From: Bacillota bacterium | Lineage (GTDB): Bacteria; Bacillota_A; Clostridia; Lachnospirales; WQUN01 | Assembly (NCBI GenBank): GCA_009786175.1 | Contig: WQTQ01000223.1 | Location: 1-35,211, forward strand | Reading direction: 5' to 3' | Length of the DNA: 35,211 bases | Part shown: positions 4,596 through 27,998 of the stretch, one piece after another | Numbering within the stretch: position 1 is the stretch's first letter | How the letters are laid out: the number at the start of each line of letters is the position of its first letter | Position numbers and translations under genes: made by a program | The notes under the pieces: model-generated | Database searches by the model: none | What the model saw: the letters and a program-made list of their open reading frames with translations, nothing else | What the model was told of the DNA's origin: nothing

Positions 4596-4607
4596 CCTTT
4601 TATAATC

Positions 4608-4700
4608 CGCTAGGGGTGCTTGTGTAGACAAACTTCGTTTGCTGCCGGGCTGAGAATAACCCTTTGTACCTGCTCCGAGTAATGTCGGCGAAGGAAAGCG
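4608..4700 (+). ncRNA. TPP riboswitch (THI element) aptamer
   Basis: All conserved blocks of the thiamine pyrophosphate riboswitch are present in order: GGGGTGC (4613-4619), GCTGAGA (from 4649), ACCCTT, ACCTG, TAAT, and GCG-AGGAAAG. The closing helix P1 pairs CGCT (4608-4611) with AGCG (4697-4700). An optional P3a arm is formed by CAAAC and GTTTG around a TTC loop. It lies 72 bp before an ABC-transporter gene and predicts repression of that operon when thiamine pyrophosphate is plentiful. Confidence 0.95.
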
Positions 4701-4724
4701 TTAAACATTCAAAAAATGTTAAAC

Positions 4725-5701: not shown

Positions 5702-5725
5702 AAATTGCTAAAAGGATGTGCTGCC

Positions 5726-13793: not shown

Positions 13794-13822
13794 TTGACAC
13801 ACCGTATACAGCATGTTACATT
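13794..13822 (+). promoter_or_regulatory. Promoter of the acyl-assembly operon
   Basis: A consensus TTGACA at 13794-13799 is followed after 17 nt by TACATT (13817-13822), preceded by TG at 13814-13815 as an extended -10. The -10 lies inside the first copy of the repeated dyad element, a position typical of repressor sites. Confidence 0.6.
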
Positions 13823-13876
13823 TATATTCCGGTTTACTAATTAAATGTTACATTTACTAATATATTGTTACATTTC
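13813..13876 (+). promoter_or_regulatory. Three operator-like repeats upstream of accB
   Basis: The sequence TGTTACAT occurs at 13814, 13846 and 13866. The middle copy is a perfect dyad, TAAATGTTACATTTA (13842-13856); the first shares ATGTTACATTTA exactly and the third TTGTTACATTTC. Centres are 32 and 20 bp apart, close to three and two helical turns, so bound proteins would sit on one face. TTTACTAA is also repeated (13833 and 13853). The rest of the 13747-13957 gap holds no gene. The binding protein is unknown; the sequence does not resemble the FapR box. Confidence 0.6.
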
Positions 13877-13957
13877 ATACCCAAGCTTAATTAATCACAT
13901 ACATCTTCACCACAGCGCGACATAAGATCGCGTATACATAGAGGGGGATAAATACTG

Positions 13958-14422
13958 ATGAATTTTACTGAAATCAAAGAACTGACAGAATGGCTCGAGA
14001 AGTCATCGTTTACGTCTTACTCCTTATCAATCAATGGCGTTCAGTTAAGCATAAGCAAACAGCAAGCTGTTACGTACCTGCCAAAAGAACTGCCTCCGGA
14101 AATTTTATCCGCTGCCCCTTCACATAATATGGCAGAGCAGTCTAATTATGCCCTTACAAATTTACAGGTTCCGTGTGACAATACCCATATCATTTATTCA
14201 CCGATCGTAGGTATTTTTTATGAAAGCGCAAGCCCGGAAAGTTCTGCTTTTGTGCAGGTTGGTCAGTCTGTAAAAAAAGGCGATATTCTTTGTATTTTAG
14301 AGGCTATGAAGATAATGAACGAGATTGTTGCCGACGTAGACGGTGTTGTTACAGAAATTTGTGTATCAAACGGAAATATGGTAGAGGCGTGCATGCCTTT
14401 ATTTAAAATAGAAGCTGTGTAG
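13958..14422 (+). CDS. accB: Acetyl-CoA carboxylase biotin carboxyl carrier protein
   Basis: A 154-residue BCCP. The C-terminal biotinyl domain (about residues 76-154) ends in the expected hammerhead fold with the biotin-attachment motif EAMKIMNE; Lys118 is the biotinylated residue. The N-terminal part is the usual short helix plus a flexible linker, here with Pro-rich KELPPEI. It carries carboxybiotin between AccC and the AccDA carboxyltransferase. It is the first gene of the long operon, with a GAGGGGG ribosome-binding site and three operator-like repeats upstream. Biotin ligase and a biotin transporter gene lie at the far end of the same cluster. Confidence 0.96.
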   Translation: MNFTEIKELTEWLEKSSFTSYSLSINGVQLSISKQQAVTYLPKELPPEILSAAPSHNMAEQSNYALTNLQVPCDNTHIIYSPIVGIFYESASPESSAFVQVGQSVKKGDILCILEAMKIMNEIVADVDGVVTEICVSNGNMVEACMPLFKIEAV

Positions 14423-14454
14423 GTAACTTTACTAAAGGGGATGCGAAAGACATT

Positions 14455-15792
14455 ATGTTCAGCAAAATTTTAATTGCAAATAGGGGCGAAATTGCCGTAC
14501 GAATTATTAGGGCCTGTAAAGAACTTGGCATCAGTACCGTTGCAATATCTTCCAAAGCTGATAAAGATGCACTTCATGTTCAAATGGCCGACCAAGCTGT
14601 ATGTGTGGGAGATTCACCAAGTAAAGACAGCTATTTAAACATGCACAATATTTTGTCTGCAATGTTTTTAACTAAAGTCGAAGCCGTACATCCGGGCTTT
14701 GGCTTTTTGTCTGAAAACGCAACTTTTGCTACCATGTGTGAGGAATGCAAGATCAAATTTATTGGACCATCTGCCGCCACAATTGATGCCATGGGCAACA
14801 AGGCGAATGCTCGCAAAGTTATGCAAGCAGCCGGTGTGCCTGTTATCCCCGGCAGCGACGGCACTGTAGACAGTGTTGATGAAGCTATAAATTTCGCCGA
14901 AATATATGGGTATCCTATTTTACTTAAGGCCTCGGCAGGGGGCGGTGGCAAAGGCATACGCCTATGTAACAATGACGAAGAATTAATCCGAAGTTATGAA
15001 GCCGCCAGGTCGGAAGCCCGTCTGTCGTTTTCAGACGATTCTATATATATGGAAAAAGTCATAACCAACGCCAGACATATCGAGGTTCAGGTTATCGCAG
15101 ATGAACATAGCAATATTATTCACCTGGGGGAACGGGAATGCTCTATGCAAATTCGCAATCAAAAAGTATTGGAAGAAGCCCCGTCACCCATCATCACCCC
15201 GGAGCTAAGGAATAAGCTTGGCGATACGGCTATTCTGGCAGCGCAAGCTTGTAACTATGCAAACGCCGGTACAGTAGAATTTTTATTGGATGAAAACAAT
15301 AATTTTTATTTTATGGAAATGAACACTAGGATACAGGTAGAACATCCGATAACAGAAATGATAACAGGCATTGACCTTGTAAAGGAACAAATATCAATAG
15401 CCGCAGGAAATAACTTGTCTGTTAAGCAAGAAGACATACAGTTTAACGGCCATTCCATCGAGTGCCGTATAAATGCAAGCAGTACCGGTTGCATAGATTA
15501 CGTGCTTTTGCCCGCGGGTGGGCCCGGTATCCGAGTTGATTCTGGCATTTTCCCGGGGTGTACCATATCTCCGTTTTACGATTCCATGATTGCAAAAGTT
15601 ATTAGCCACGGGAGTACCCGCACCGAAGCCGTTTTAAAAATGAAAAGGGCGTTAAGCGAGTTTATGGTAACCGGCATAGAGACTAACTTAAATTTACAAA
15701 TGCAAATACTAAAAAATGAAAGTTTTCTGAAGGGCGAATACTACACTACTACGTTAACACAATTGCTAGAATCGTCGGAGGTAAGTCTGTGA
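14455..15792 (+). CDS. accC: Acetyl-CoA carboxylase, biotin carboxylase subunit
   Basis: A 445-residue ATP-grasp enzyme of normal length. The N-terminal domain starts FSKILIANRGEIAVRIIRACKELGI, the ATP-grasp glycine loop is KASAGGGGKGIRL, and the active-site block is MEMNTRIQVEHPITEMITGIDLV. It carboxylates the biotin on AccB using ATP and bicarbonate. It lies 32 bp after accB and its stop overlaps the GTG start of accDA by 4 bp, implying coupled translation. Nothing looks degenerate. Confidence 0.96.
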   Translation: MFSKILIANRGEIAVRIIRACKELGISTVAISSKADKDALHVQMADQAVCVGDSPSKDSYLNMHNILSAMFLTKVEAVHPGFGFLSENATFATMCEECKIKFIGPSAATIDAMGNKANARKVMQAAGVPVIPGSDGTVDSVDEAINFAEIYGYPILLKASAGGGGKGIRLCNNDEELIRSYEAARSEARLSFSDDSIYMEKVITNARHIEVQVIADEHSNIIHLGERECSMQIRNQKVLEEAPSPIITPELRNKLGDTAILAAQACNYANAGTVEFLLDENNNFYFMEMNTRIQVEHPITEMITGIDLVKEQISIAAGNNLSVKQEDIQFNGHSIECRINASSTGCIDYVLLPAGGPGIRVDSGIFPGCTISPFYDSMIAKVISHGSTRTEAVLKMKRALSEFMVTGIETNLNLQMQILKNESFLKGEYYTTTLTQLLESSEVSL

Positions 15793-17570
15793 GTATTTTT
15801 AAGAGAAAAAGATATAAAGCAGTCATACGCAATTTGGAAATTTTAAAGCAATCTACCACCGATCAGCTTAGGTTTAGAAAGCACGAAAACAGGGTAATGC
15901 GCAGCATAAAAAAGTTAGTAAAGCGTTTCCGGCATGATAGATGGCAAAATGTACCGGATGGTATGTGGATTAAATGTATCAAATGCCAAGGAGTAATTTA
16001 TAATAAACAATTGGGCGACCATAAAATTTGCCCAAATTGCAATATATCTTTTCGCATTACTGCCCGGGAAATGATTGGCCTAATTGCAGATATAGACAGC
16101 TTCAAAGAACGGGATGAACATCTTGTTTCTAACGATCCCATCCAATTCCCCGGATATGTACAAAAAGTTAGCGCGCTGGCAGATACATTAGATATAAAAG
16201 AAGCTGTTGTAACAGGTCGCTGCTCCATACACGGCATAGACACAATGCTTGGTGTAATGGACAGCAATTTTATTATGGGCTCTATGGGGTCGGTGGTAGG
16301 CGAAAAATTAACCAAAGCTTTTGAAGAAGCTACAAAAAACCGCTTGCCTATTATTGTATTTACGGCTTCCGGCGGTGCCCGTATGCAAGAAGGCATCGTT
16401 TCACTAATGCAAATGGCTAAAGTAAGCGGTGCCGTTAAACGCCATTCCGATGAAGGATTGTTATATGTCACCGTATTAACAGACCCTACCACAGGAGGTG
16501 TTACAGCCAGTTACGCTATGCTTGGGGACATAATCTTGGCAGAACCCGGGGCTTTAGTAGGCTTTGCAGGACGAAGGGTTATCGAGCAAACAATCAAACA
16601 AAAATTACCGGAAGATTTTCAAAGTGCAGAGTTTGTACTAAAAAACGGTTTCATTGATAAAATTGTACCCCGCGATAAAATGCGCGATACACTTGGTCAG
16701 CTCTTGAAATTGCATGATAACGGCCCAGAACCCCATATTCATAAAAATACCGATTTCCGATATTTTACAGACTGTTGCGATACAGAACCGTCAAAAGTGG
16801 TAGAAATTTCACGAAAAAAGACACGTCCCACATCAAAAGATATTATTTCTTATATGCTAACAGACTTTATTGAACTGCATGGCGATCGTAACTTCCGTGA
16901 CGACGGGGCTGTTATAGGCGGTGTGGGATACTTAAACGGTAAGCCCATTACCGTTGTAGCAACGCAGAAGGGTCGCGACTTACAAGAAAATTTAGCTACA
17001 AATTTCGGTCAGCCACACCCTGAAGGTTATCGCAAAGCATTACGCCTTATGAAACAGGCCGAAAAGTTTGGACGCCCTATCTTAGCTCTTATTAACACCA
17101 GCGGGGCATACCCCGCAGCAACCGCAGAGGAAAGAGGACAAGGCGAGGCAATAGCGCGAAATTTATTTAACATGTCAGGGCTTAAAGTACCTGTAATATC
17201 TGTTATAATAGGTGAAGGAGGCAGTGGCGGTGCGCTGGCACTTGCATTGGCAGATAAAGTATATATGTTCGAGTATTCCATATATTCCATTTTATCGCCC
17301 GAAGGTTTTGCCAGCATACTATGGAAGAACGCCGAAAGAGCAAAAGAAGCGGCAGCAGTAATGAAATTACGCCCTAAAGACTTACTAGAGTTGCAAATAA
17401 TTGAAGGTATAATTCCCGAAGCCGAAGGCGGGTTCGATAATGACATGTCATACTCACTGGATTACCTTAAACAGCTTCTAACTCATGAGTATAATGTGCT
17501 TTTACAAAAGACAACGGGAGGATTACTAGACGAGCGATATGCCAGGTTTAGAAAATTTGGGGCATATTAA
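15789..17570 (+). CDS. accDA: Acetyl-CoA carboxylase carboxyltransferase, beta-alpha fusion (AccD-AccA)
   Basis: A 593-residue single chain holding both carboxyltransferase subunits. The N-terminal AccD half carries the four-Cys zinc finger (Cys63, Cys66, Cys81, Cys84) and the crotonase-fold block TASGGARMQEG; the AccA half begins near residue 325 with SYMLTDFIELHGDRNF and contains INTSGAYPAATAEERGQGEAIA and GEGGSGGALALALAD. It moves the carboxyl group from biotin to acetyl-CoA to give malonyl-CoA, the extender for the enzymes encoded downstream. In many bacteria accD and accA are separate genes; the N-terminal helical segment of a free AccA appears shortened at the join. Start is GTG within the accC stop. 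Confidence 0.94.
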   Translation: MSIFKRKRYKAVIRNLEILKQSTTDQLRFRKHENRVMRSIKKLVKRFRHDRWQNVPDGMWIKCIKCQGVIYNKQLGDHKICPNCNISFRITAREMIGLIADIDSFKERDEHLVSNDPIQFPGYVQKVSALADTLDIKEAVVTGRCSIHGIDTMLGVMDSNFIMGSMGSVVGEKLTKAFEEATKNRLPIIVFTASGGARMQEGIVSLMQMAKVSGAVKRHSDEGLLYVTVLTDPTTGGVTASYAMLGDIILAEPGALVGFAGRRVIEQTIKQKLPEDFQSAEFVLKNGFIDKIVPRDKMRDTLGQLLKLHDNGPEPHIHKNTDFRYFTDCCDTEPSKVVEISRKKTRPTSKDIISYMLTDFIELHGDRNFRDDGAVIGGVGYLNGKPITVVATQKGRDLQENLATNFGQPHPEGYRKALRLMKQAEKFGRPILALINTSGAYPAATAEERGQGEAIARNLFNMSGLKVPVISVIIGEGGSGGALALALADKVYMFEYSIYSILSPEGFASILWKNAERAKEAAAVMKLRPKDLLELQIIEGIIPEAEGGFDNDMSYSLDYLKQLLTHEYNVLLQKTTGGLLDERYARFRKFGAY

Positions 17571-17597
17571 CAAACTTATAATGAGAGGTGCTTGATT

Positions 17598-19085
17598 ATG
17601 AAAAAACGCGTCATTATTGTTGGCGGCGGTATAGCAGGACTTTCCGCAGGTGTGTATGCACAAAAATGCGGCTTTGATGTCATCATTTTAGAAAGCCACA
17701 ACATTGCGGGGGGAAATTGTACTGCATGGAAGCGCAAGGGTTATCTTTTTGAGGGCGCAATGCACTGGTTAACGGGCTCCAGTAAAAAAGAACCGATTAA
17801 TAAAATATGGCGGCATATAGGTGCTTTGAATGATAACGTGGCTGTACACTATCCAGAGCCATATAAAGACTTTATATATAGGGGGGAATCTATCAAACTG
17901 TACCGGGATGTCAACTTAACCGAAAAGCACTTGATAGAGCTTTCCCCGTCTGACGAAAGAGAAATCAAGGTACTTTGCAATAACATCCGTAAAATCAGTA
18001 AGCTTGTAATGCCTGTTGCAGATTTACGCGGAGTAAAAGTAACAAAATGGCAGTTCCCACCCATTAAGTTACTTTTCGCATATCTATCCGGTAATCGAAT
18101 GATGAAAAAATCTTCTAAAATCCCAAAAGAAGAGTATATTAGGCGGTTTAATCACGAGGGCCTGCGCGAGTTGTTCAGGCATTTTTGTTCTGGAAAGTAC
18201 AGTGCTACCTGGTTGTATTTTTCCTTGGCTACGCAAGCACGCGGTGACGGCGGTTTCCCTGAAGGCGGTTCGCTGCCATTTGTAGGGCGTATTGTAAAAA
18301 CCCTAAAAGAACACGGCGGAAAAATTCTTTTTAATACCCGAGTTGATCGTGTAGTGGTCAAAGACGGCAAAGCCGTTGGCGTTGAAACCGGAGGGGAATT
18401 TCTCCCTGCAGATGCCGTAATTGTAGCATCAGACACTATGCAAATAGATCACTTATTCGACGCTCCGCCGCAAGCCCCATGGCTTGATGAAATGCGCAAA
18501 ACAACAGAACCAATCATGTGTACATTTGTTTCCCTGGGCATAAACGCCAACCTAAAAAGGTATCCCAAGAATTGCATGTTCAAGCTTGAGAAACCACTTA
18601 TAGTAGCAATGCAAGAATACACATATATACAAATTAATAATTATGCCAATGATCCCACCTATTCTCCCGACGGGAAAGCCGCCGTTACTATGCACCTTAT
18701 TAGCGACAGTTATGATTTTTGGAAAAAAGCAAGGGACGAAGGCAGATATGCAGAAGAGAAAGAAAAAGTTGCCGCCGATGTAATTGCCGCTTTAACAACA
18801 CAATTGCCGGAAATTGACGGCAAAGTTGAAGTTTGCGATGTTGCTACACCTCTAACGTACGAGCGTTATTGTGCTACCTGGAAAGGTTCATGGATGACAA
18901 TGATGGCACATACGATGAAAATTAAAGCATATCCCGCGATTGTATCAAATATTTCAAGCCTCTATTTTGCAGGGCACCGCATGAGAGCCCCCGGCGGCTT
19001 GCCGATTGCAGCCAGAAGTGGCCGCGCCGCAGTGCAGTATCTTTGCCGCGATACAAAGACAGTGTTTGTCAGCGAAGATAAGTGA
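17598..19085 (+). CDS. CrtI/phytoene-desaturase-like FAD-dependent oxidoreductase
   Basis: About 495 residues. The N-terminus is a classical FAD-binding fold, RVIIVGGGIAGLSAGVYAQKCG, followed by an acidic ILES and GGNCTAWKRKGYLFEGAMHWLTG. The C-terminal FAD motif is SLYFAGHRMRAPGGLPIAARSGRAA. This is the flavin amine-oxidase/phytoene-desaturase superfamily, which includes carotenoid desaturases and isomerases and also saturases such as RetSat. Inside an acyl-assembly operon with no recognisable enoyl reductase it may desaturate, isomerise or reduce a polyene chain; that is inference. I choose ATG 17598 (GAGAGGTG eight nt upstream) over the TTG two codons earlier. It begins 27 bp after accDA. 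Confidence 0.85.
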   Translation: MKKRVIIVGGGIAGLSAGVYAQKCGFDVIILESHNIAGGNCTAWKRKGYLFEGAMHWLTGSSKKEPINKIWRHIGALNDNVAVHYPEPYKDFIYRGESIKLYRDVNLTEKHLIELSPSDEREIKVLCNNIRKISKLVMPVADLRGVKVTKWQFPPIKLLFAYLSGNRMMKKSSKIPKEEYIRRFNHEGLRELFRHFCSGKYSATWLYFSLATQARGDGGFPEGGSLPFVGRIVKTLKEHGGKILFNTRVDRVVVKDGKAVGVETGGEFLPADAVIVASDTMQIDHLFDAPPQAPWLDEMRKTTEPIMCTFVSLGINANLKRYPKNCMFKLEKPLIVAMQEYTYIQINNYANDPTYSPDGKAAVTMHLISDSYDFWKKARDEGRYAEEKEKVAADVIAALTTQLPEIDGKVEVCDVATPLTYERYCATWKGSWMTMMAHTMKIKAYPAIVSNISSLYFAGHRMRAPGGLPIAARSGRAAVQYLCRDTKTVFVSEDK

Positions 19086-19088
19086 TAA

Positions 19089-19586
19089 ATGGTGGACTTA
19101 CATTTGTTTAACACTGCAAGCTTCAACTTTGTAAAAAATTTGAGTACAATTTCCACCGACTTGCCTAAAGAAAACCGTACTATTAGCAAATCTTACACAA
19201 AAGACGCGATGGCGTTGTGTGTTTCCGACGCAGCAAAAATTGGAATTGATATAGAAAAAAAGCTGAAACGTTCACCGGAAACCATTATACATTTTGTTAA
19301 AAAATATATCACGTTTCAAATAAAAAGCATACCATCCGATATGAATGAGCAATGGTTTTACAAAGCATGGACAGCAATGGAAAGCTATTTCAAATTAGCC
19401 GGTAAGGGCTTTAGCACACCAAAAAACTTCGTACTAGACATAGAGCAACAGCTTATTTTGCATGATGGCAAACAAGCTGCTTGGCTGGAATACTTTAATA
19501 TCGGTAATTTTGTAATATGCATCTGCAGTGATACAGCATTTTCAAAGCAAGATGTACAAATAAGTTTTCATGGTTGGGAGGGCTAA
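19089..19586 (+). CDS. 4'-phosphopantetheinyl transferase (short Sfp-type)
   Basis: A 165-residue protein with the Sfp-type magnesium motif KIGIDIEKK (Asp54, Glu56) and the second motif AWTAMESYFKLAGKGF (Trp94, Glu98, Lys102). In the second motif the Lys next to the Glu in the usual WxxKEAxxK is Met97. It is shorter than Sfp (about 220 residues), as its N-terminal half is reduced. Its role is to attach phosphopantetheine from CoA to the Ser of a carrier protein, most simply the ACP encoded four genes on. It begins 3 bp after the oxidoreductase stop and its ribosome-binding site is weak, so it may rely on coupled translation. Assignment rests on these motifs; activity is not certain. Confidence 0.8.
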   Translation: MVDLHLFNTASFNFVKNLSTISTDLPKENRTISKSYTKDAMALCVSDAAKIGIDIEKKLKRSPETIIHFVKKYITFQIKSIPSDMNEQWFYKAWTAMESYFKLAGKGFSTPKNFVLDIEQQLILHDGKQAAWLEYFNIGNFVICICSDTAFSKQDVQISFHGWEG

Positions 19587-19587
19587 T

Positions 19588-20508
19588 ATGAAGAAATATG
19601 CTCTGGTATTTTCGGGGCAAGGGTCCGAACGGGTGGGGATGTTTAACGACCTGCTGAAAGAACCGGTAATGCTTAATCAAGTACTGGATACATTGAAGGA
19701 GCAGCTAAATTTGGACTTTCACGATGCGGTGATAACTAAAGACGCCGGAATTGTTAATAAAAACAATCAACTGTTGTTAAGCCTTTATCACCACCTATTA
19801 ACGAAGTTGCTTACAAAAAAAATAGGCTACTCCCCGGCATACTGCATGGGACACAGCTTTGGACAGTTTTCGGCTTTAACAAATTCCGGTGCCGTCGACT
19901 TTGTTGATATGGTAGATTTTATCAATAAACGCACAGACATTATCAATTCCGGTAGCATTGAAGTAAAAGCTGTTTTCAAAAGCATACACGGCATGACTTT
20001 GGAAACATTTGAACATTTTCAAGCTAATGAAGGACTTGCGGGGCAGGTAGAACTGGCTCTGCATAATCAAAAAGAACAAGTTGTTTGCGGGACAACTAAA
20101 GCCGGAGAAGCAAAGCTTAATGAACTTTCTGCCAAGTATAACTATGTGCTTAAACATGTGCATGTGTCAAGGCCATACCATACACAATTTATGAAAGAGT
20201 ACAATCAACTTTTGCTTCCACATATAGACAACCTGGTGGTTATGGCACCCCAATATCCTGTTGTACTTAACAATTCTATAAAAGCAGCTTCGGACGCAGA
20301 ACTGTTACGGGATGAAACCAAAATACAAATGATAAAACCTGTGTTTTGGTATGACAGCGTTAAAAGTTTATCGGATAAAGTAGATGCTTTCGTAATTATT
20401 GACCCAAGCGAAACCCAGTATAAAATTTTACGACGTATTACTGATAAAAAAATCCACAATATTAATAATCTCGGTACTGTAAAAATGATAGAAAAGAAGG
20501 GAGTATAA
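19588..20508 (+). CDS. Malonyl-CoA:ACP transacylase (FabD-like)
   Basis: A 306-residue acyltransferase. The N-terminal block is VFSGQGSERVGM (GQGSQ in most relatives), the nucleophile elbow is GHSFGQFSAL with Ser90, a carboxylate-binding Arg sits at about 115 (INKRTDI), and the catalytic His is His198 in SRPYHTQF; these spacings match FabD. It should load malonyl groups from CoA to the ACP. The start ATG at 19588 has GGGAGGG just upstream; the ATG at 19570 in the same frame would overlap the preceding gene and is less likely. The gap to the upstream gene is 1 bp. It is likely the dedicated extender-loading enzyme of this operon. Confidence 0.88.
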   Translation: MKKYALVFSGQGSERVGMFNDLLKEPVMLNQVLDTLKEQLNLDFHDAVITKDAGIVNKNNQLLLSLYHHLLTKLLTKKIGYSPAYCMGHSFGQFSALTNSGAVDFVDMVDFINKRTDIINSGSIEVKAVFKSIHGMTLETFEHFQANEGLAGQVELALHNQKEQVVCGTTKAGEAKLNELSAKYNYVLKHVHVSRPYHTQFMKEYNQLLLPHIDNLVVMAPQYPVVLNNSIKAASDAELLRDETKIQMIKPVFWYDSVKSLSDKVDAFVIIDPSETQYKILRRITDKKIHNINNLGTVKMIEKKGV

Positions 20509-20510
20509 AC

Positions 20511-21257
20511 ATGGATACTAACACAGAAAAAATTGCGTTGGTAACTGGGGGGTCAAGGGGGATAGGTGCGGCAATTGCGTTGGAGTTATCCAAAAATTAT
20601 CACGTTATTATTAACTATAATAACAGTGAAGCAAAGGCACTTGAAGTTGTAAAGCAGATAACCGATGCCGGAGGCAGTGCAGAAGCTATAAAAGCGGATG
20701 TCACTAATGAAAGAGATGTAATTAAAATGTTTCGTCATATCTGGACCACTTTTAAAAACTTACATCTGCTTGTAAATAATGCGGGTATTACTGCTGACGG
20801 TTACATTATGACCATGAGTTTAGAATCATGGAACAGAGTGCTTAACACAGACCTTACTTCCGTTTTCTTATGTACCAGAGAAGCACTAAAAATCATGTAC
20901 AACGTAAAGACGAAAGGCAAAATCATTAACATTGCGTCTGTAAGCGGCATTGTAGGCCTTGAAGGACAAGCAAATTATAGCGCGGCAAAAGGGGGAGTAA
21001 TTGCGTTTACAAAAAGTGCCGCAAAAGAAATAGCCGGTTACGGAATTACTATAAACACAATCGCACCGGGCTTTATCGAAACAGACATGGTAAAAAAAGT
21101 GCCGCATGGTGTCATAAATAAAGTTATCGACAGCATACCAATCAAGCGTGTCGGTACAGCCGAGGAAGTAGCTAAACTTGCCGCCTACCTGGCCGGTGAT
21201 GATACCAGTTACATGACGGGAAAAATTTTTACTATAGACGGCGGAATGGTTATTTAA
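20511..21257 (+). CDS. 3-oxoacyl-ACP reductase (FabG-like ketoreductase)
   Basis: A 248-residue short-chain dehydrogenase. Cofactor loop VTGGSRGIGAAIA at residues 11-23, NNAG at 89-92, catalytic Ser143, Tyr156 and Lys160 (NYSAAKGG). The C-terminal GKIFTIDGG is typical of FabG. It reduces the 3-keto group made by the ketosynthase with NADPH. The start lies 2 bp after the upstream stop with a GGGAG ribosome-binding site. Length and motifs are standard; the chance of a different SDR role is lowered by its position between the malonyl transferase and the ACP. Confidence 0.92.
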   Translation: MDTNTEKIALVTGGSRGIGAAIALELSKNYHVIINYNNSEAKALEVVKQITDAGGSAEAIKADVTNERDVIKMFRHIWTTFKNLHLLVNNAGITADGYIMTMSLESWNRVLNTDLTSVFLCTREALKIMYNVKTKGKIINIASVSGIVGLEGQANYSAAKGGVIAFTKSAAKEIAGYGITINTIAPGFIETDMVKKVPHGVINKVIDSIPIKRVGTAEEVAKLAAYLAGDDTSYMTGKIFTIDGGMVI

Positions 21258-21294
21258 GTACGTATCGTTCAAATCAAGGAAGGATTATCAAGAC

Positions 21295-21585
21295 ATGACA
21301 GTAAAAGAAAAGATTGCTGAAAGAAGTCAATTGTGCCAATCTATACGGGAAATTATTGTAGACAGGCTTATGCTTGACATCTCAGCAGATTTTATTAGTA
21401 ATGACCAACCATTGGTTGGGCGCGGGTTAGAGCTTGACTCTATCGACAGCTTAGAGATATCTGTTGCTGTAAATATGGAAATGGATGTAACTATTACCGA
21501 CGAAGACAGCACTACTATTTTTAGTTCTATAAACCACCTTGCAGACTTTATAGAAAAAGCAAGGGAGAGGGCGGATGAGGAATGA
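21295..21585 (+). CDS. Acyl carrier protein
   Basis: A 96-residue ACP, slightly longer than the common 75-80. The attachment motif is GLELDSIDSLEI, with Ser49 after Asp48 as the phosphopantetheine site, followed by a helix of the usual length and the acidic stretch DEDSTTIFSSI. It is separated by 37 bp from the ketoreductase gene, and its stop overlaps the start of the dehydratase gene (ATGA). It would hold the growing chain during all steps encoded here. The extra residues are at the N-terminus and C-terminus. Confidence 0.9.
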   Translation: MTVKEKIAERSQLCQSIREIIVDRLMLDISADFISNDQPLVGRGLELDSIDSLEISVAVNMEMDVTITDEDSTTIFSSINHLADFIEKARERADEE

Positions 21586-22055
21586 GTCGGCAGTGGAATC
21601 ATCAATGGATAAAGGATAGACTGCCTCATCGTTGGCCTTTTTTGCATGTAGACCGGGTAACCAAAATAACCGGAAAAAGTATTGAAGGTTATAAAAATGT
21701 CTCTGCATCTGACAGTGTTTTTCTGGGGCATTTCCAAGAAGTATCCGTTTTGCCTGGTGTAATTGTTGTGGAAGCTTTGGCACAATTAAGCGGGTTGTTT
21801 TTACTTGCCAACGAAGAAGAAGCCGCAACCGACGATGATGTGGACATTGCCGCAAAAATTGGCCTGCTTACAAGTATACGTAATTTTAAGTTTATCAAGA
21901 TAATTGAACCGGGCGACCAACTTCTTCTTAAGTCTATACTTAAGGGAAGCAACGGAGACTGTTATGTATTTGCGGTTTCTGCCTATGTAGATAATCGCGA
22001 AGTTGCTGTAGGAGAATTACAACTCTTTTTGCAAAAACGGGAGGCGGTTATATAA
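21582..22055 (+). CDS. 3-hydroxyacyl-ACP dehydratase (FabZ-like hot-dog)
   Basis: A 157-residue hot-dog protein. The start has LPHRWPFLHVDRV, close to the FabZ signature, and the active site is GHFQEVSVLPGVIVVEALAQLSG with His50 and Glu64 as the catalytic pair; GHFP of ordinary FabZ reads GHFQ. It removes water from 3-hydroxyacyl-ACP to give a trans double bond. With no recognisable enoyl reductase in the operon, the double bonds may be kept. Translation overlaps the ACP gene at the start and the next gene at the stop (TAATG). Confidence 0.9.
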   Translation: MSRQWNHQWIKDRLPHRWPFLHVDRVTKITGKSIEGYKNVSASDSVFLGHFQEVSVLPGVIVVEALAQLSGLFLLANEEEAATDDDVDIAAKIGLLTSIRNFKFIKIIEPGDQLLLKSILKGSNGDCYVFAVSAYVDNREVAVGELQLFLQKREAVI

Positions 22056-23653
22056 TGTTTGGTGGAGTTGACTTTGAGCTATTTCAAGAAAGTGACGCGC
22101 AGCAAGTTGCAGATATGTTAAACAGAAACCGTTTTCATTCTGCCAGAAACGGCCACATAACAGCTGAACTTTATTTGTTTTTGCGGCGATGCCGCGGTTC
22201 CGCATTTACCATTTTAGCTAAGAAAAACGGTAAAGTTGTTGGCATAGCAGGAGCTTATCCAACATCTGATAACCATGTCGCCAAAAACAAACAAATATAT
22301 ATAGGTACATTTTTGGTTGATATACAGTATCGTCTTTCGTATTCAGTCATTATGGGATTGTATGACGCAATTAGCAAAGAATTTACCAGCAAAGGCTATA
22401 TGGAACTGATTTCGCTTGTCAGGCCGCAAAATGAATCCTCGTATAATCTTATGATTAAGTGCGGCTACGTTCTGATAGATAATACCCCAAATGATTTTGG
22501 GCGCATGAAATTGAACAATTTTGCACCTACGCTGTCCAATTATATCGGTGAGACTGCAGAAATAACCAATAAAACAATTTACACAATATTACCCGTAGTA
22601 GATAAAAAAGAAGCACGGAAAATGCAAGGAAAACCGCTAATACACGGCAGATATATTGAGTGCAATTATCAACTTGCAAGGAAAAATGTGGTACTGCTTT
22701 TCGACACTGTTAACTACAAGGTTGATGGCGCAATTGTTCCAATGTATTGTAAATTGTACCCGGATTTTTATACAAAAGGAAGATATATCCTTGAAAATTT
22801 AAGAAGGTTGAAGAGCATTACCCTTCCTGTCGAATTAGTTATGGAACCGGAATCCGGCGTAGAAAATATGAGATACGAAATCACACTAGAAGCCGGGCAA
22901 TCACAAGCTGTCGAATGTTCCGAAAGTGTCAGCGAATTTCGGTTTCTTTATAACAACGTATGGTACAGGCTACACCCAAACAAGTTTGAAGAAGTTATCA
23001 TTCCCAAAGAGCCTATCAGGCTTGAATGCGGTAAGCTATCTGTCAAACTAGAGCCATCTACAGGTTTCATGTCTGTAATGAGTGGTGAAACAAAATTGAC
23101 GACTCTTGTATGGCCATGCCCGGTAATCCCATATCTTGAAGGGCTTTTTGACCCTCGTATAAAGGAACTTGATGTGGTGCAAACCGAAAATTGCCTGACC
23201 ATAACAGAAGAAACCGATAGTTACAAACTGACACGTATATGTTTGCTTTCTGAAAATAAAATGGACGTAACTACAACATTCAAATGTAAAACAGACGATG
23301 TGGAAGTTCGTCCGATAACACAAATATATGCGGAAAAAGGTGTGCAAGGATATGCAGTAAAATCCGGAGACAGAACAATGGACTTTAACGCGCAGAAAAT
23401 CAAACACATTGGATATGAATTTAGCGACTACACCTATTGGGATTCCGAGCCTGAACGCTATGTAGGTTTTCCGGTAGAAATTTTATCTTTTAAGTATCCA
23501 TCATCTGCTGTTGATATTGCAATTGACAAAAAATGCAAATTTATTGATCATGCACCTGTTTTTGTGTCAACATTGGATTTTGACGGGGACAAATTATTGG
23601 ACGAGCAGGTAATCGAACAAATACAAGTTAACTACAGAACGGAGGACGTGTAA
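22055..23653 (+). CDS. GNAT-domain protein with large unknown C-terminal half
   Basis: A 532-residue protein. Residues 1 to about 165 look like a GNAT acyltransferase: LKKNGKVVGIAGAYPT-type strand, IGTFLVDIQYR near the acyl-CoA site, and a final PQNESSYNLMIKCGYVLID block. Residues 170-532 are rich in alternating beta-strands with few helices and resemble a multi-strand beta-sandwich (possibly mutarotase-like); I do not recognise a family. It overlaps both neighbours by a base, so it is firmly part of the operon. A GNAT domain in such a pathway might acylate a head group or release the chain from the carrier; that is speculative. Confidence 0.6.
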   Translation: MFGGVDFELFQESDAQQVADMLNRNRFHSARNGHITAELYLFLRRCRGSAFTILAKKNGKVVGIAGAYPTSDNHVAKNKQIYIGTFLVDIQYRLSYSVIMGLYDAISKEFTSKGYMELISLVRPQNESSYNLMIKCGYVLIDNTPNDFGRMKLNNFAPTLSNYIGETAEITNKTIYTILPVVDKKEARKMQGKPLIHGRYIECNYQLARKNVVLLFDTVNYKVDGAIVPMYCKLYPDFYTKGRYILENLRRLKSITLPVELVMEPESGVENMRYEITLEAGQSQAVECSESVSEFRFLYNNVWYRLHPNKFEEVIIPKEPIRLECGKLSVKLEPSTGFMSVMSGETKLTTLVWPCPVIPYLEGLFDPRIKELDVVQTENCLTITEETDSYKLTRICLLSENKMDVTTTFKCKTDDVEVRPITQIYAEKGVQGYAVKSGDRTMDFNAQKIKHIGYEFSDYTYWDSEPERYVGFPVEILSFKYPSSAVDIAIDKKCKFIDHAPVFVSTLDFDGDKLLDEQVIEQIQVNYRTEDV

Positions 23654-24711
23654 TGCTTACTGAAATAAACAACCTTTTTGGCGGCTTTGCAGAACTAAAA
23701 GAGGTAAAAGACAGCCAAGTTGTTGCCGTAGCAAGCGATAAGCGTGTGGAGTATGATAACATAAGACAAGATGTTGGCATTCTTCCTATGACATTTACAA
23801 CATACTACAAGATAACTGGTGACGAAGCAGAAGAGATACTTGACAACTTACTGACTAAAAGTGTGCAATACTTAAATTACGGTCAAAACCGACTTTGCTA
23901 TTTTTTGAAGGAATCCGGCGATGTTGCTGCGTTTGTTACAATATATAAAAACGATGAAAACTTCTTTATTGAGACATTTAACTGGGACACGCAAGCTGTC
24001 GAAACGATAATGCACAAAAACAGCCTCTCTTTTGAAAAGCTGAATTATAGCTGCATTTTATTGGAAGGCTTAAAAACAGTCGAGTTTATGGCAGAGGCAA
24101 TGGATATTACCGTTGACTATTTTGTATATCAAAGCCATCAGGAATTAGAATGTTTTGGCAAGGATGTTACGATTGCCCGTACCGGGTACACCGGCGAGTT
24201 TGGATACAAGCTAATAGGCAATGCAGAAGATATTTTAGCAATTTGGAAAAACCTTCTGCCTGCCCACAAAAGTAAAATTGCCGGATATAACGCATTTGAA
24301 ATGTGCCATTTTGAAATAAAGCAGCCGTTTTGGGAATTACCATATCTGTCACTAAGCAGCAATGCCTTCGAGATAGATTATCATTGGCTTGTAGACTTCA
24401 AAAAAGATATTGATTATGTGGGCAAAGATGCTTTGCTTAATACCAAATTTGCCGAAGCGTCCAAAAGAATCATCGGCAGCTTATCAGATGCAGAATCCCC
24501 TGTGGGTGATGATGTAATGCTGGAGGCCGAAGTAATAGGTAAGGTCGTAGACAGCAGGCTTTCATATGGACTAAACAAGTATATTACAATGATATTTATC
24601 AGTAAAGACTACGCCCATGTAAATGTTGATTTGCAAACAGCAAGCGGACAAATGCTTCATACAGTATCCGCGCCCTATATTTTCCCTGCCAGCTGGACTG
24701 TGAACAGATAA
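23653..24711 (+). CDS. GcvT-fold (T-protein-like) protein with altered active site
   Basis: A 352-residue relative of the glycine-cleavage T-protein family. It keeps the overall plan: an N-terminal DVGILPMTFTTYYKITGDEAEEIL block, the signature RTGYTGEFGYKLI at residues 176-188, and a C-terminal barrel-like domain with IGKVVDSRLSYGLNKYITM. The catalytic segment GGVIDD of true aminomethyltransferases reads GDVAAF at 89-94, so the catalytic Asp is missing. No gcvH, gcvP or lipoylation gene is nearby. It therefore is unlikely to be a glycine-cleavage enzyme; folate binding, methyl transfer or demethylation (as in DmdA-type relatives) or another role in tailoring remain possible. Its start overlaps the previous stop. 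Confidence 0.75.
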   Translation: MLTEINNLFGGFAELKEVKDSQVVAVASDKRVEYDNIRQDVGILPMTFTTYYKITGDEAEEILDNLLTKSVQYLNYGQNRLCYFLKESGDVAAFVTIYKNDENFFIETFNWDTQAVETIMHKNSLSFEKLNYSCILLEGLKTVEFMAEAMDITVDYFVYQSHQELECFGKDVTIARTGYTGEFGYKLIGNAEDILAIWKNLLPAHKSKIAGYNAFEMCHFEIKQPFWELPYLSLSSNAFEIDYHWLVDFKKDIDYVGKDALLNTKFAEASKRIIGSLSDAESPVGDDVMLEAEVIGKVVDSRLSYGLNKYITMIFISKDYAHVNVDLQTASGQMLHTVSAPYIFPASWTVNR

Positions 24712-24740
24712 TAGAGTTATGACGCCAACAAGGAGGATTT

Positions 24741-27146
24741 ATGAATAACGACCGCGTAGTTATTACCGGTATGGGAGTTGTGGCGTGTAACGGACATAAT
24801 CCCCAAGACCTTACCGCTAATGTTAATGCTAATATTAGCGGTATTAAAGAATGTACACGGCACGACATGACAGGGCTAAAAAGTCAGCTTGCAGGCGAGA
24901 TTGACTATGGCGAGCTGTACAAAGTCTTGCCAAACGAAGACGATGTAGAAAAAACTATTTATTTAGCGTATTACGCAACACAACAAGCCATCTCCAACGC
25001 GGGAATAGATTTTACAAGTTCCAACAAAAATGTTGCCATTGTTATAGGCAGCCTGTTTGGCGGCTTTAATACATCTGTGCATGTGCATGAAGAATTTCTG
25101 AAAGATCACACATTGCAAGATATTGACACAGGCATACTTGAATATTTCAGCCCATGTAGTATTCCCAGCTATTTGTCGAAAAAGTTTAACATCAAAGGTG
25201 CAAAAATTGTGGTTAGCAACGCCTGTGCTTCCGGTGGAAGCGCAGTTGGTATGGCTTATGACCTGATACGTTCCGGCCTTGCAGACATGGCAATCGCCGG
25301 CGGCGCAGACGAGCTTAACCGCTTATCTTTAGCCGGTTTTAACAGCCTTGGTGCGCTTTGCCCCAAAAACTGTACGCCATACACCAACAGTACGGGAATA
25401 AACATTGGTGAAGGCGCGGGCATTTTTGTTTTAGAAAAGCTTGCCGACGCGCAAGAGCGCGGCTGCGAACCTCAAGTTGAAATTGTGGGATACGAGTTAA
25501 ATTCTGACGCGTTTCATATTACGTCACCTGACCCTAACGGAGAAGGCGCATTCCGTACAATGAGGGCTGTGTTAGACCGCAACAACATCCCGCTGGAAGC
25601 TGTTTCTTATGTAAACGGACACGGAACAGGCACAATGGGCAACGACTCATCTGAAACAAAATCTGTGAAGCGTTTGTACGCAAACAGTGAAATTGTTGGC
25701 AAGCTTACAAGCAATAAAGGCGTACTTGGACATTGCATGGGGGCGGCCGGTGCCGTAGAGCTTTTTGTGGCATCTCAATCTATCATAGATGGTATAATAC
25801 CGCCCACATATCACGGCGAAAAGCAAAAAGAGTTTACGGGAATTGAGATTGTTAAAGAAGCCATAAAGGATCCATGCCCGGTTGTGCTTTCCAATTCATT
25901 CGCCTTTGGCGGTAACAATATAACCGTGGGTATATCTGCGCCGGAGTATTTCGATTTCAACCAACTGGATAATCATATGATTGATGATGAAATTATTATC
26001 ACAGGTATTGGATGCGTAGGGAACAAACACACTTCTTTTGAAGAATATCTTTCGCTGCTTGCAAATAACGATAATGAATTTGCCGCAAACCCGGAATATG
26101 AAGGCAAGTACAGCTCTGTTTACCACGGAGTAGTGCCCGAATACGACTATCGCAAATACATGTCTCCCGACTTTTTCAGAAAAACGGACTTAATCAGCAA
26201 ACTCTCTATAATTTCATCTGTGTCCGCCATAAAAGACTCTAACATAAAAATTGTCCGGGCAAATGAAGAACGCATCGGCCTAATTTACGGCACGGGAACA
26301 GGCCCTATTTCCACGATAGAGAAGCTAAACTCCGAAATTTTACAACACGGATTACCGGGAATGAATGCTTTCTTCTTCCCCAACAGCGTGTGTAATGCCG
26401 CGCCGGGCTATATAACCATGAACAGCCGTATAAAAGGCACAACCATTACCATAAATTGCGGCGGTGCTACATTTGCTTCCAACATGTTGTACGCCAAGTT
26501 GGTGCTGCTGCAAAACAAAGCAGACCACGTAATTGTTACCGTAGCAGACGATTACAACGAAGTTTATCATGCCGCACATGACCGAATCAAACATCTGTCA
26601 TGTGGCAATAAAATAGAAAGCTTTTTTGGCGATACTAACACAATATTACTATCGCCTGGCAGTGTTTCAATTATGCTGGAGCGCAAGCAAACCGCCGTTG
26701 AACGCGGTGCGAAAACGTATGCAAAATTTGTTGGCGGTACGCTGACGGGTTCTTGCTCATCTAAGAAAGACCCTGAGTCAAACAAGGCCGCAATGTACCA
26801 TGCCTATGAAAATACACTGGCTGTAACAAACCTAACTGCCGAAGATGTGGATGTGTATTTCGCTAACACAACGGGAAGACGTTCAATGGACACACTGGAG
26901 AAAAACGCAGTAATAGATAAGCTTACAAAACCTATTATTTCTTCTGCACGGCAGTTTAGCGGAACCAATGCTGCACTAATGTCCGCTTATTCAGCCCTTT
27001 CGGCGGTTGCGGCTTTTTCCGGCTTGCCCGTTTACGATGTGCTTAACGGTCAAATTATTACACAAACAGATAACATCAATAACGTAGTAATTGCATCACA
27101 TTTCTATGACGAAACATTTGGAAACTTAATTTTAAGCAGGGTCTAA
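24741..27146 (+). CDS. Fused ketosynthase plus chain-length-factor-like protein
   Basis: An 801-residue tandem of two thiolase-fold units. Residues 1-400 are an active-looking FabF-type ketosynthase: Cys162 (SNACASGGSA), His294 (NGHGTGT), Lys326 and His331 (KGVLGHCMGAAG). Residues 415-801 repeat the fold but are degenerate: the Cys position is kept (INCGGATFAS, Cys573) while the first His is Asn709 (FANTTGRR) and the second His/Lys block reads SARQFSGTNAAL. This is the arrangement of KSalpha with a chain-length factor (KSbeta), normally two genes in type II polyketide systems. It should extend ACP-bound chains with malonyl units. It is the last gene of the operon and ends 15 bp into the convergent biotin ligase. 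Confidence 0.9.
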   Translation: MNNDRVVITGMGVVACNGHNPQDLTANVNANISGIKECTRHDMTGLKSQLAGEIDYGELYKVLPNEDDVEKTIYLAYYATQQAISNAGIDFTSSNKNVAIVIGSLFGGFNTSVHVHEEFLKDHTLQDIDTGILEYFSPCSIPSYLSKKFNIKGAKIVVSNACASGGSAVGMAYDLIRSGLADMAIAGGADELNRLSLAGFNSLGALCPKNCTPYTNSTGINIGEGAGIFVLEKLADAQERGCEPQVEIVGYELNSDAFHITSPDPNGEGAFRTMRAVLDRNNIPLEAVSYVNGHGTGTMGNDSSETKSVKRLYANSEIVGKLTSNKGVLGHCMGAAGAVELFVASQSIIDGIIPPTYHGEKQKEFTGIEIVKEAIKDPCPVVLSNSFAFGGNNITVGISAPEYFDFNQLDNHMIDDEIIITGIGCVGNKHTSFEEYLSLLANNDNEFAANPEYEGKYSSVYHGVVPEYDYRKYMSPDFFRKTDLISKLSIISSVSAIKDSNIKIVRANEERIGLIYGTGTGPISTIEKLNSEILQHGLPGMNAFFFPNSVCNAAPGYITMNSRIKGTTITINCGGATFASNMLYAKLVLLQNKADHVIVTVADDYNEVYHAAHDRIKHLSCGNKIESFFGDTNTILLSPGSVSIMLERKQTAVERGAKTYAKFVGGTLTGSCSSKKDPESNKAAMYHAYENTLAVTNLTAEDVDVYFANTTGRRSMDTLEKNAVIDKLTKPIISSARQFSGTNAALMSAYSALSAVAAFSGLPVYDVLNGQIITQTDNINNVVIASHFYDETFGNLILSRV

Positions 27147-27998
27147 TCCCTGCTGTATACATATACTAATTTCACCGGCGGCAAGTGTAAGTACTTCACC
27201 GTTATCTTTTTGCACAATTAAATGCCCCGCCTCGTCAATATCGATTGCGGTAGCTTCATATGGTTCATTTTGCCCATTGATAATAACTTTTTCCCCTAAC
27301 ATCATAAGGCGTTTTCTATATTTTGATAATATTAGCTTGCTGTCGGATTGGCTTTCTTCAAAAACCAGCATTCTATTTATGATTTCGGCAATTAGTCTGT
27401 TTCTTGTTATATTTGGTATACTATCTGAAAAAACAGCATCTGCTTTGTACTTTATGTCATGCGGAAAGCCGCCTGTAGGTACAGTGAAGTTAATACCAAT
27501 ACCAACAACTATCCATTGCATGCTGCCGGTTTCAAAATTAGTAACTGCTTCCGTTAAAATACCGCATATTTTTTTCCCGTTTAAATAAATATCGTTGATC
27601 CATTTTATCTTAGGTGTTTTTTCTGTTGTGGTTTCAATCGCTTCACACACTGACACCGCCGCGTAGGATGTTATTAACGTTGAATTACTAAGCAGGTGCA
27701 ATTGTACGGGACGCAAAATAAGACTCAGATATATTCCGTGGCCGGGCGGCGAAAAAAAACTACGGTTGAATCGCCCTTTTCCGGCGACCTGATAATCCGC
27801 AATAATTATCGTACCGTGTTCTGCCCCACAGATTGCCATTTCTTTTGCCGTTTTATTTGTTGACTCTAAAGAACCGTAAATATGTATTTTACCGGCAGTC
27901 TCTTTTTTGTGCAAAAACGGAAGTATACTCTCAACCGATAAAATGTCGCTGTCACTGCAAAGGCAGTAACCCTTGTTGACACATTTTTTTGTACTCAT
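27132..27998 (-). CDS. birA: Biotin-protein ligase without the HTH domain
   Basis: A 288-residue biotin ligase. The catalytic core has STNKTAKEM, QVAGKGRFNRSFFSPPGHGIYLSLILRP (the GxGRxGR biotin loop, here GKGRFNR) and KWINDIYLNGKKICGILTE. The N-terminus (NKGYCLCSDSDILSVESI) matches the end of the winged-helix domain of bifunctional BirA, but the helix-turn-helix itself is missing: an in-frame TGA lies six codons upstream of the ATG. It should biotinylate AccB but not bind DNA. It is convergent with the last operon gene and divergent from bioY. Confidence 0.9.
   Translation of the reverse strand: MSTKKCVNKGYCLCSDSDILSVESILPFLHKKETAGKIHIYGSLESTNKTAKEMAICGAEHGTIIIADYQVAGKGRFNRSFFSPPGHGIYLSLILRPVQLHLLSNSTLITSYAAVSVCEAIETTTEKTPKIKWINDIYLNGKKICGILTEAVTNFETGSMQWIVVGIGINFTVPTGGFPHDIKYKADAVFSDSIPNITRNRLIAEIINRMLVFEESQSDSKLILSKYRKRLMMLGEKVIINGQNEPYEATAIDIDEAGHLIVQKDNGEVLTLAAGEISICIQQGLDPA

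What the first reader, a model, noticed from the sequence alone, without database searches (positions are those of the whole stretch)
13794..27146. Self-contained type II acyl assembly operon with its own acetyl-CoA carboxylase and no enoyl reductase
Twelve genes in one direction with mostly overlapping or few-bp junctions encode malonyl-CoA supply (AccB, AccC, AccDA), carrier activation (PPTase), loading (FabD-like), ketosynthase-CLF, ketoreductase, ACP and dehydratase, plus three unusual proteins. No FabI, FabK, FabL or FabV-type enoyl reductase and no plain thioesterase is visible. The KS-CLF form and lack of reductase point to an unsaturated chain (polyene-type product) instead of housekeeping fatty acids. 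This is the best candidate for an undescribed pathway in the window.
Basis: partly seen in the sequence, partly recalled or inferred. Interest (0 to 1): 0.85.

Follow-up and report, generated by a model that had tools for sequence, protein, structure and literature searches.

The report
cyl-like polyene lipid operon
An uncultured clostridium carries a relative of the gene set with which group B streptococcus makes its orange polyene lipid, here joined to its own malonyl-CoA-making genes and an extra carotenoid-desaturase-like enzyme; it is a new version of a known pathway, not a new pathway.

Summary
In detail: twelve genes, one direction, 13958-27146: ACC (AccB, AccC, fused AccDA), a CrtI-like flavoprotein, PPTase, FabD, FabG, ACP, FabZ, a 532-aa protein, a GcvT-like protein, a fused KS-CLF; no enoyl reductase.

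The reading changes. D-G-acp-Z-E-F-I is the gene order of the cyl operon (granadaene, an ornithine-rhamnose polyene lipid). The 532-aa protein is CylE-like: among 5,869 ORFs of held loci its profile hits only 14 loci, mostly at the cylE position; its model is a GNAT plus a mutarotase-like domain. The GcvT-like protein lacks the aminomethyltransferase aspartate (kept in 4 of 24 rows), against the published ammonia role.

Unusual: (1) built-in ACC, AccC/AccDA 79%/72% identical to a related genome's fab operon; (2) a CrtI-like gene, linked by equal contig length to the KS-CLF in nine relatives; (3) no exporter or glycosyltransferase. A related MAG has the same core with an ABC exporter and a different ACC; beyond weak stretches, no other ketosynthase, FabH, FabK or AccA was found there. 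Host fatty-acid synthesis may be lost; unproven, as the window's genome is not held.

New variant of a known kind.

The parts
13794..13822 (+). sigma-70-like promoter with extended -10, overlapping the first of three exact TGTTACATTT repeats (13814, 13846, 13866), a possible operator
   Evidence: consensus match only
13958..14422 (+). accB, biotin carboxyl carrier protein
   Evidence: TIGR00531 134.5 bits, over cut-off
14455..15792 (+). accC, biotin carboxylase
   Evidence: TIGR00514 over cut-off; 79% identical to AccC of the fab operon of G870
15789..17570 (+). accDA, fused carboxyltransferase beta+alpha
   Evidence: TIGR00515 and TIGR00513 over cut-off; 72% identical to fused AccDA of G870
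17592..19085 (+). CrtI/CrtISO-like FAD oxidoreductase (likely start 17598)
   Evidence: PF01593 over cut-off; NCBIfam crtI_fam and carot_isom far below cut-off; same-contig fingerprints with KS-CLF
19089..19586 (+). phosphopantetheinyl transferase (CylK role)
   Evidence: PF01648
19570..20508 (+). malonyl-CoA:ACP transacylase (CylD role)
   Evidence: PF00698 over cut-off, TIGR00128 below cut-off
20511..21257 (+). FabG-type ketoreductase (CylG role)
   Evidence: NF009466 over cut-off, TIGR01830 best but below cut-off
21295..21585 (+). acyl carrier protein (AcpC role)
   Evidence: PF00550 over cut-off; NCBIfam PRK09184 best, below cut-off
21582..22055 (+). FabZ-type dehydratase (CylZ role)
   Evidence: NCBIfam PRK00006 over cut-off
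22055..23653 (+). CylE-like acyltransferase: GNAT domain (1-165) + beta region + galactose-mutarotase-like domain (about 317-530)
23653..24711 (+). CylF-like GcvT homologue, Asp of the GGxxDD motif replaced by Ala
   Evidence: PF01571; alignment to 1woo; column counts
24741..27146 (+). fused ketosynthase-chain length factor (CylH/I role)
   Evidence: PF00109/PF02801; 27-row alignment; tree
27132..27998 (-). BirA-type biotin-protein ligase, convergent with the operon; probably serves AccB
   Evidence: TIGR00121 over cut-off; BirA also follows acc in L103
28049..28657 (+). BioY biotin importer S component
   Evidence: PF02632; BioY next to acc in L103 too

Best explanation
This is a cyl-like operon for a polyene lipid with its malonyl-CoA supply built in. 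ACC (AccB probably biotinylated by the neighbouring BirA) makes malonyl-CoA; the PPTase activates the ACP; the FabD-like enzyme loads malonyl-ACP; the KS half of the fusion condenses and the CLF half limits length; FabG and FabZ turn each new ketone into a double bond that is never reduced, giving a conjugated polyenoyl-ACP. The CylE-like GNAT protein then moves the chain from ACP to an amine (ornithine in granadaene; unknown here). The CrtI-like flavoprotein probably isomerises or partly reduces the polyene. Shown: gene content, order, homology, folds, conserved catalytic residues of the KS. Inferred: each reaction, the chain, the acceptor, the CrtI-like and CylF-like roles.
For: Order D-G-acp-Z-E-F-I equals cylX-D-G-acpC-Z-A-B-E-F-I-J-K as listed in PMC9125021 (passage), without A and B. 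A GcvT-like gene lies just upstream of the KS-CLF in 19 of the 83 loci L001-L083. The 532-aa profile hits 16 of 5,869 ORFs, all below 1e-6 and no other up to E 10, from 14 distinct loci, 13 of which also hold a GcvT-like ORF; two rounds of re-building added only short pieces of loci already hit. A named non-streptococcal yardstick, Lactiplantibacillus plantarum pLB1-2A, shows FabG-ACP-FabZ-ABC-ABC-CylE-like-GcvT-like-KS. The same core occurs in G878 with an ABC exporter. The KS-CLF tree places the window in a starred set with L103 (CylE+GcvT). No enoyl reductase.
Against: No CylA/CylB exporter and no glycosyltransferase in the operon; CylA is called universal in cyl operons by PMC6985545. The CylE similarity to the L. 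plantarum protein rests on the GNAT domain (second domain E 23). KS-CLF identity to the CylE-bearing loci outside its own clade is about 30-34%. GcvT + KS-CLF operons without a CylE-like hit in the flanks are as many in the tree (13 rows) as those with one (13 rows), so the wider group need not make one product. The CrtI-like protein has relatives at about 60% identity in many gut bacteria that need not carry this operon. KS-CLF pairs also occur in aryl-polyene and other type II systems.
Confidence: 0.8

Rival explanations
1. Housekeeping fatty-acid synthesis: the operon is the host's only FAS and a distant or non-canonical enoyl reductase (possibly the CrtI-like protein) saturates each double bond.
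For: In G878, besides this KS-CLF, PF00109 found only a 39-position, 28.5-bit stretch on C16 (such stretches also in G842 and G870); FabH none; FabK only an 18.2-bit stretch; one AccA, on the operon's contig. The window's ACC is of the housekeeping fab-operon kind. The CrtI-like protein is present in G878 (58%) and in none of five relatives of the same family in the same call.
Against: CylE- and CylF-like genes have no known place in FAS. Relatives G870, G807, G842 and G893 each have FabH, a FabF-type KS and a FabK-type protein on one contig (the FabK of G893 is below the cut-off). G878 is of unknown completeness, so one missing contig would explain the absence; G833 also shows none of these, and G807 and G893 show only 47-bit AccA matches, so gaps are common in these assemblies. 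In G878 the CrtI-like gene is on another contig, beside a CAAX-protease-like, an epimerase and a galactokinase-type gene.
Confidence: 0.08
2. Aryl-polyene or other KS-CLF pigment system (xanthomonadin/flexirubin type) unrelated to cyl.
For: The ACP's best NCBIfam match is PRK09184 and the KS matches PRK09185, both below cut-off; I recall these as aryl-polyene cluster families. FabG also matches flexirubin FlxB below cut-off.
Against: No aryl starter enzymes (ammonia lyase, AMP ligase), second KS or outer-membrane genes among the 30 proteins scanned; CylE/CylF-like genes present.
Confidence: 0.06
3. Same cyl-like core, but the ACC and CrtI-like genes are only neighbours (for example housekeeping ACC left behind by a lost fab operon), not part of the pathway.
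For: AccC and AccDA are 79% and 72% identical to the fab operon of G870, where fabF-accB-fabZ-accC-accDA follow each other; CrtI relatives are widespread.
Confidence: 0.25

Closest known systems
cyl operon / granadaene (Streptococcus agalactiae; survey in PMC6985545, sections 6-8 and passages read)
   Same: FabD, FabG, ACP, FabZ, CylE-like acyltransferase, CylF-like GcvT homologue and KS in the same order; PPTase; no enoyl reductase
   Different: Own ACC with BirA/BioY beside it, CrtI-like flavoprotein, no CylA/B exporter, no CylJ or other glycosyltransferase; CylF-like protein without the GGxxDD Asp. No streptococcal sequence was fetched, so no direct identity or length comparison is given.
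cyl-like cluster of Lactiplantibacillus plantarum pLB1-2A (NZ_CP025992)
   Same: FabG-ACP-FabZ-CylE-like-GcvT-like-KS order; CylE-like protein of 666 aa hit by the profile at 4e-18
   Different: ABC transporter inside the operon; no CrtI-like hit and no ACC operon in the stretch (a 106-aa CDS annotated 'acetyl-CoA carboxylase' lies about 7 kb away on the other strand; not examined)
GcvT + fused KS-CLF operon of Priestia megaterium plasmid pBM500 (NC_014025)
   Same: PPTase-FabD-FabG-ACP-FabZ-GcvT-fused KS-CLF
   Different: No CylE-like hit; acyl-CoA thioesterase, SDR and MFS transporter instead
Fused KS-CLF operons of Ruminococcus, Lachnospira eligens, Treponema, Acholeplasmatales
   Same: Fused KS-CLF with FabG and FabZ; ACC genes in the flanks of 8 of the 39 tree rows of this kind
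   Different: No CylE- or CylF-like gene found; separate branch of the KS-CLF tree (support 65)

Membership tests
[quoted passage not shown]
   same order in L103
cyl operon | CylH/I ketosynthase | tested here: met
cyl operon | CylE N-acyltransferase, stated universal | tested here: met
   profile of the window family finds proteins in 14 loci, most at the cylE position; GNAT fold. Compared with non-streptococcal homologues only
cyl operon | CylF GcvT-type protein, stated universal | tested here: met
   R176, G178, E182, E221, W245 in 24 of 24 rows. GGxxDD Asp absent in the window
cyl operon | CylA (ABC ATPase), stated universal | tested here: not met
   no ABC gene in 13958-27146; present in the related L103. 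It may lie elsewhere in the genome, which is not held. So: a cyl-like operon, not filed as a strict cyl operon
cyl operon | glycosyltransferase (CylJ or equivalent) | tested here: not met
   none among the 30 proteins scanned
cyl operon | CylX (said to generate malonyl-CoA) | not tested
   no CylX sequence was fetched; the window has ACC instead
cyl operon | product an ornithine-glycosyl polyene | not testable with these tools
   needs chemistry
Housekeeping type II FAS | enoyl-ACP reductase and FabH-type initiation in the set | tested here: not met
   none in operon or scanned flanks; rest of host genome not testable
GcvT aminomethyltransferase (glycine cleavage T-protein) | Asp of the GGxxDD motif (its catalytic role recalled; motif from the 1woo alignment) | tested here: not met
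   window A93; D in 4 of 24 rows
Aryl polyene clusters | aryl starter enzymes and second KS (recalled) | tested here: not met
   none among the 30 proteins scanned

The most novel reading that the evidence does not exclude
These clostridia have lost ordinary fatty-acid synthesis and keep the whole malonyl-CoA branch (ACC, biotin ligase, biotin importer) only to make a polyene lipid, whose double bonds are then edited by the CrtI-like flavoenzyme; ACC was recruited at least twice (housekeeping type in the window, a split and divergent type in G878), and transcarboxylase-type genes fill the same place in two other clostridial cyl-like operons.
Probability: 0.2. Interest if true: 0.7.

Novelty: new variant of a known kind. 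Interest (0 to 1): 0.5.

Why it matters
It extends granadaene-type polyene lipids to a lineage of uncultured clostridia and shows that there the pathway comes with its own malonyl-CoA supply, which hints at life without de novo fatty-acid synthesis. It also questions a published role: CylF was proposed to cleave amino acids for ammonia (PMC6985545, section 8), but the aspartate of the T-protein GGxxDD motif is missing in 20 of 24 rows aligned here (window included), while R176, G178, E182, E221 and W245 are kept in all 24. Some of these lie in what I recall as the folate-binding motif, so the protein may bind a folate-like ligand without that chemistry. Both points can be tested with purified proteins and closed genomes.

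Tried and rejected
Own-genome searches: impossible, no genome held. The close relative was found only by drawing 344 genomes of an order, after 391 of the class gave three distant hits and 398 of the phylum none for the 532-aa protein at 1e-8; 245 of another order gave only the genome already known. A viral-contig scan gave no relative.

Idea rejected: CylF makes a 3-hydroxypropionyl starter from methylene-folate. From the ion C39H53N2O8 given in PMC6985545 the free acid, after removal of ornithine and rhamnose, is C28H32O3 with 13 unsaturations, which fits a C4 (3-hydroxybutyryl-like) start, so this idea lost its ground. Idea not carried further: a folate link from antifolate effects on pigment, recalled only; one search gave one paper, by its title and abstract not on the point.

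Housekeeping FAS and aryl polyene were considered and put under rivals. Structure matches of the C-terminal domain of the CylE-like protein include sugar enzymes and also the YidC periplasmic domain, so I draw no function from that fold. The first beta region (about 190-310) is barely tested by those searches.

Contig fingerprints compare 'longest_contig' lengths in the listings. Equal length is a fingerprint, not proof of one contig. Six of the 29 KS contigs are under 12.4 kb and can hardly hold all genes.

Literature: 'ACC or a CrtI-like gene not described for cyl operons' rests, on zero occurrences of 'acetyl-CoA carboxylase' in PMC6985545, of 'carboxylase' and 'phytoene' in PMC6920887 and of 'carboxylase' in PMC9125021. 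Figures and supplements were not seen, and PMC6985545 speaks of 'various redox enzymes' in actinobacterial operons.
Full report
OBSERVATION. Twelve same-strand ORFs lie at 13958-27146, with gaps of at most 37 nt or short overlaps. Domain scans give AccB, AccC, a fused AccD-AccA, a CrtI-family FAD oxidoreductase, a PPTase, a FabD-like transacylase, FabG, ACP, FabZ, a 532-aa protein with a weak GNAT match (below Pfam's cut-off), a GcvT-like protein and an 801-aa protein with two ketosynthase-like halves. A sigma-70-like promoter starts at 13794 and three exact TGTTACATTT repeats lie at 13814-13875. No enoyl reductase was found in the operon or in the flanking proteins scanned. BirA and BioY follow on the far side. 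The host is a spore former by its neighbours (SpoIVB, DpaA/B); its genome is not held.

WHAT IT IS. A tblastn of the twelve proteins against 89 held loci shows a GcvT-like gene just upstream of the KS-CLF in 19 of the 83 loci L001-L083, with FabZ in 19, FabG in 18, ACP in 18 and FabD in 10 of these; they include Paenibacillus, Bacillus, Priestia, Lachnospiraceae, Kribbella, Streptomyces, Rhodococcus and Cutibacterium. FabD-FabG-ACP-FabZ-(ABC, ABC)-acyltransferase-GcvT-KS is the order of the cyl operon (order as written in PMC9125021, passage; functions in PMC6985545, sections 6, 7 and 8 read). The test was the 532-aa protein: a profile of 19 rows, the window's included, run over 5,869 ORFs of 127 loci, hit 16 ORFs below 1e-6 and no other up to E 10; they come from 14 distinct loci (two rows are pieces of the same G878 gene), 13 of which also hold a GcvT-like ORF. 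In most it sits between FabZ and GcvT; in L006 and L012 it lies after the KS-CLF. The hit in the L. plantarum plasmid (4e-18) covers the GNAT domain; in Paenibacillus L004 both the GNAT and the C-terminal domain match. Loci with GcvT but no CylE-like hit (Priestia, Kribbella, G220, G261 and others; 13 tree rows) exist, so CylE marks a subset of a wider GcvT + KS-CLF group.

THE GcvT-LIKE PROTEIN. It aligns with T-proteins along both domains (1woo, E 3e-20). Where 1woo has NGGIIDDLVV the window has SGDVAAFVTI, so the first Asp of the pair is Ala. In 24 aligned rows (window included; some near-identical pairs among them) D is present in 4 (two Paenibacillus, one Bacillus, one spirochaete), while R176, G178, E182, E221 and W245 are present in all. 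That this Asp is catalytic is recalled, not tested. PMC6985545 proposes that CylF releases ammonia; that is unlikely for this protein. The streptococcal protein was not examined.

NEAREST GENOME. Of 344 genomes of one order, one (G878, 1.7 Mb) has the KS-CLF at 78%; its protein sits at zero branch length from P0013, a MAG protein that NCBI names 'Defluviitaleaceae bacterium'. Of 16 genomes of its family it is the only one with a match along the whole query; ten others match over the first half only at 32-36% and five had no match at 1e-40. Its contig (L103) reads PPTase 51%, FabD 62%, FabG 76%, ACP 88%, FabZ 75%, CylE-like 45%, GcvT-like 70%, KS-CLF 78%, then ABC ATPase and two ABC-2 permeases, then AccB, AccC, AccD, AccA, BioY, BirA. 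In G878 the ketosynthase matches were the two halves of this protein and one 39-position stretch of 28.5 bits, over the family's cut-off but also seen in two relatives; FabK gave only an 18.2-bit stretch; one AccA, the one on this contig; FabH none. Among the five relatives searched beside it, G870, G807, G842 and G893 have FabH, a full KS and a strong FabK-type match (three of the four over the cut-off); AccA is strong in G870 and G842 and only 47 bits in G807 and G893; G833 lacks all. Completeness of G878 is not known and the relatives keep FabH, FabK and KS on one contig, so loss of fatty-acid synthesis is a lead, not a result.

ORIGIN OF THE ACC GENES. The window's AccC and AccDA are 79% and 72% identical to those in the fab operon of G870 (fabF-accB-fabZ-accC-accDA, L142) and 72% and 69% to G842's, but only 57% (AccC) and 54-58% (AccA, AccD) to those in G878's cyl-like operon. 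Thus two related operons carry ACC genes of different kind. In L012 a carboxyltransferase (PF01039), a PYC_OADA protein and a biotin carrier lie directly before the PPTase; in L006 a PYC_OADA protein and a biotin carrier, preceded by a 510-aa protein similar to the window's AccDA, lie before two unassigned ORFs and FabD. This could be a transcarboxylase route. ACC genes also flank fused KS-CLFs without CylE and CylF hits (8 of 39 such rows: L002, L013, L021, L023, L030, L037, L040, L047; flanks end at 10 kb or the contig end in most, so this is a lower bound).

THE CrtI-LIKE PROTEIN. It lies 21 nt after accDA and 3 nt before the PPTase gene. By equal contig length, CrtI homologues (66-84%) go with the KS-CLF in nine of 29 close KS rows (eight of the 17 on contigs of 20 kb or more, plus one of 15 kb), and with the CylE-like protein on one further contig; the window itself makes one more. 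G878 has one at 58% on another contig, while five relatives of its family have none, and six other genomes with GcvT + KS-CLF (G001, G002, G004, G220, G261, G800) have none or only stretches of about 40 residues. But homologues at about 60% are common in other gut bacteria (2,532 proteins at E up to 0.001, 120 listed), so a wider function is possible. In an anaerobe, isomerisation or reduction seems likelier than desaturation; this is inference.

TREE. In a tree of 77 KS-CLF rows the window lies in a starred set with P0002, L103 and P0013 (98), inside a starred 11-row clade that joins the clostridial GcvT loci, with and without CylE, at support 89 (not starred). Rows with neither CylE nor GcvT fall on one side of a branch of support 65. 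L034 and L024 are not in the tree. Labels depend on flanks of at most 10 kb in most loci, often less.

VERDICT. It works like a cyl operon up to the amide-forming step (confidence 0.8). It is not filed as a strict cyl operon because CylA and a glycosyltransferase are missing from the operon. It is a new variant: built-in ACC, CrtI-like flavoprotein, no exporter.

PAPERS. PMC6985545: outline with abstract, passages, sections 6-8. PMC6920887, PMC7083881, PMC9125021: passages. All others: search listings only.

Noticed in passing
4602-4713 (+) and 4772-8104 (+): A TPP riboswitch stands before a PhnD-like binding protein and a fused PhnC-PhnE ABC importer, so the importer probably carries thiamin or a precursor, not phosphonate.
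   Followed up: no
10172-12085 (-): IspH fused to a polyprenyl diphosphate synthase (637 aa). In the 20 and 16 genomes searched, no single match covered both parts.
   Followed up: partly
13814-13875: Three exact TGTTACATTT repeats in 62 bp, the first over the -10 of the operon promoter; a fourth exact copy at 13512. L103 has no exact copy and one with a mismatch.
   Followed up: partly
L006:12851-14883: A PALP enzyme and an ornithine-cyclodeaminase-family protein lie together in this Lachnospiraceae cyl-like operon, as in SbnA/SbnB-type diaminopropionate synthesis (recalled), so its head group may be diaminopropionate instead of ornithine.
   Followed up: no
L006:1358-4825 and L012:1894-5255: Transcarboxylase-type genes upstream of cyl-like genes, a possible malonyl-CoA supply without ACC (the L006 carboxyltransferase was judged by similarity to AccDA only).
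   Followed up: no
L012:12765-16047: An EryCIII-like glycosyltransferase domain, an FMN-reductase-like protein and an ABC ATPase follow the KS-CLF in this cyl-like operon.
   Followed up: no
L002, L013, L021, L023, L030, L037, L040, L047: Fused KS-CLF without CylE/CylF hits but with ACC genes in Lachnospira, clostridial, Erysipelotrichaceae, Anaeroplasma and Acholeplasmatales records; product unknown.
   Followed up: no
L127 (Rahnella sikkimica plasmid): Holo-ACP synthase, SDR, FabZ-type, ACP, GcvT-like and KS genes beside an ABC transporter and a filamentous haemagglutinin pair in a gamma-proteobacterium.
   Followed up: no
   Followed up: no
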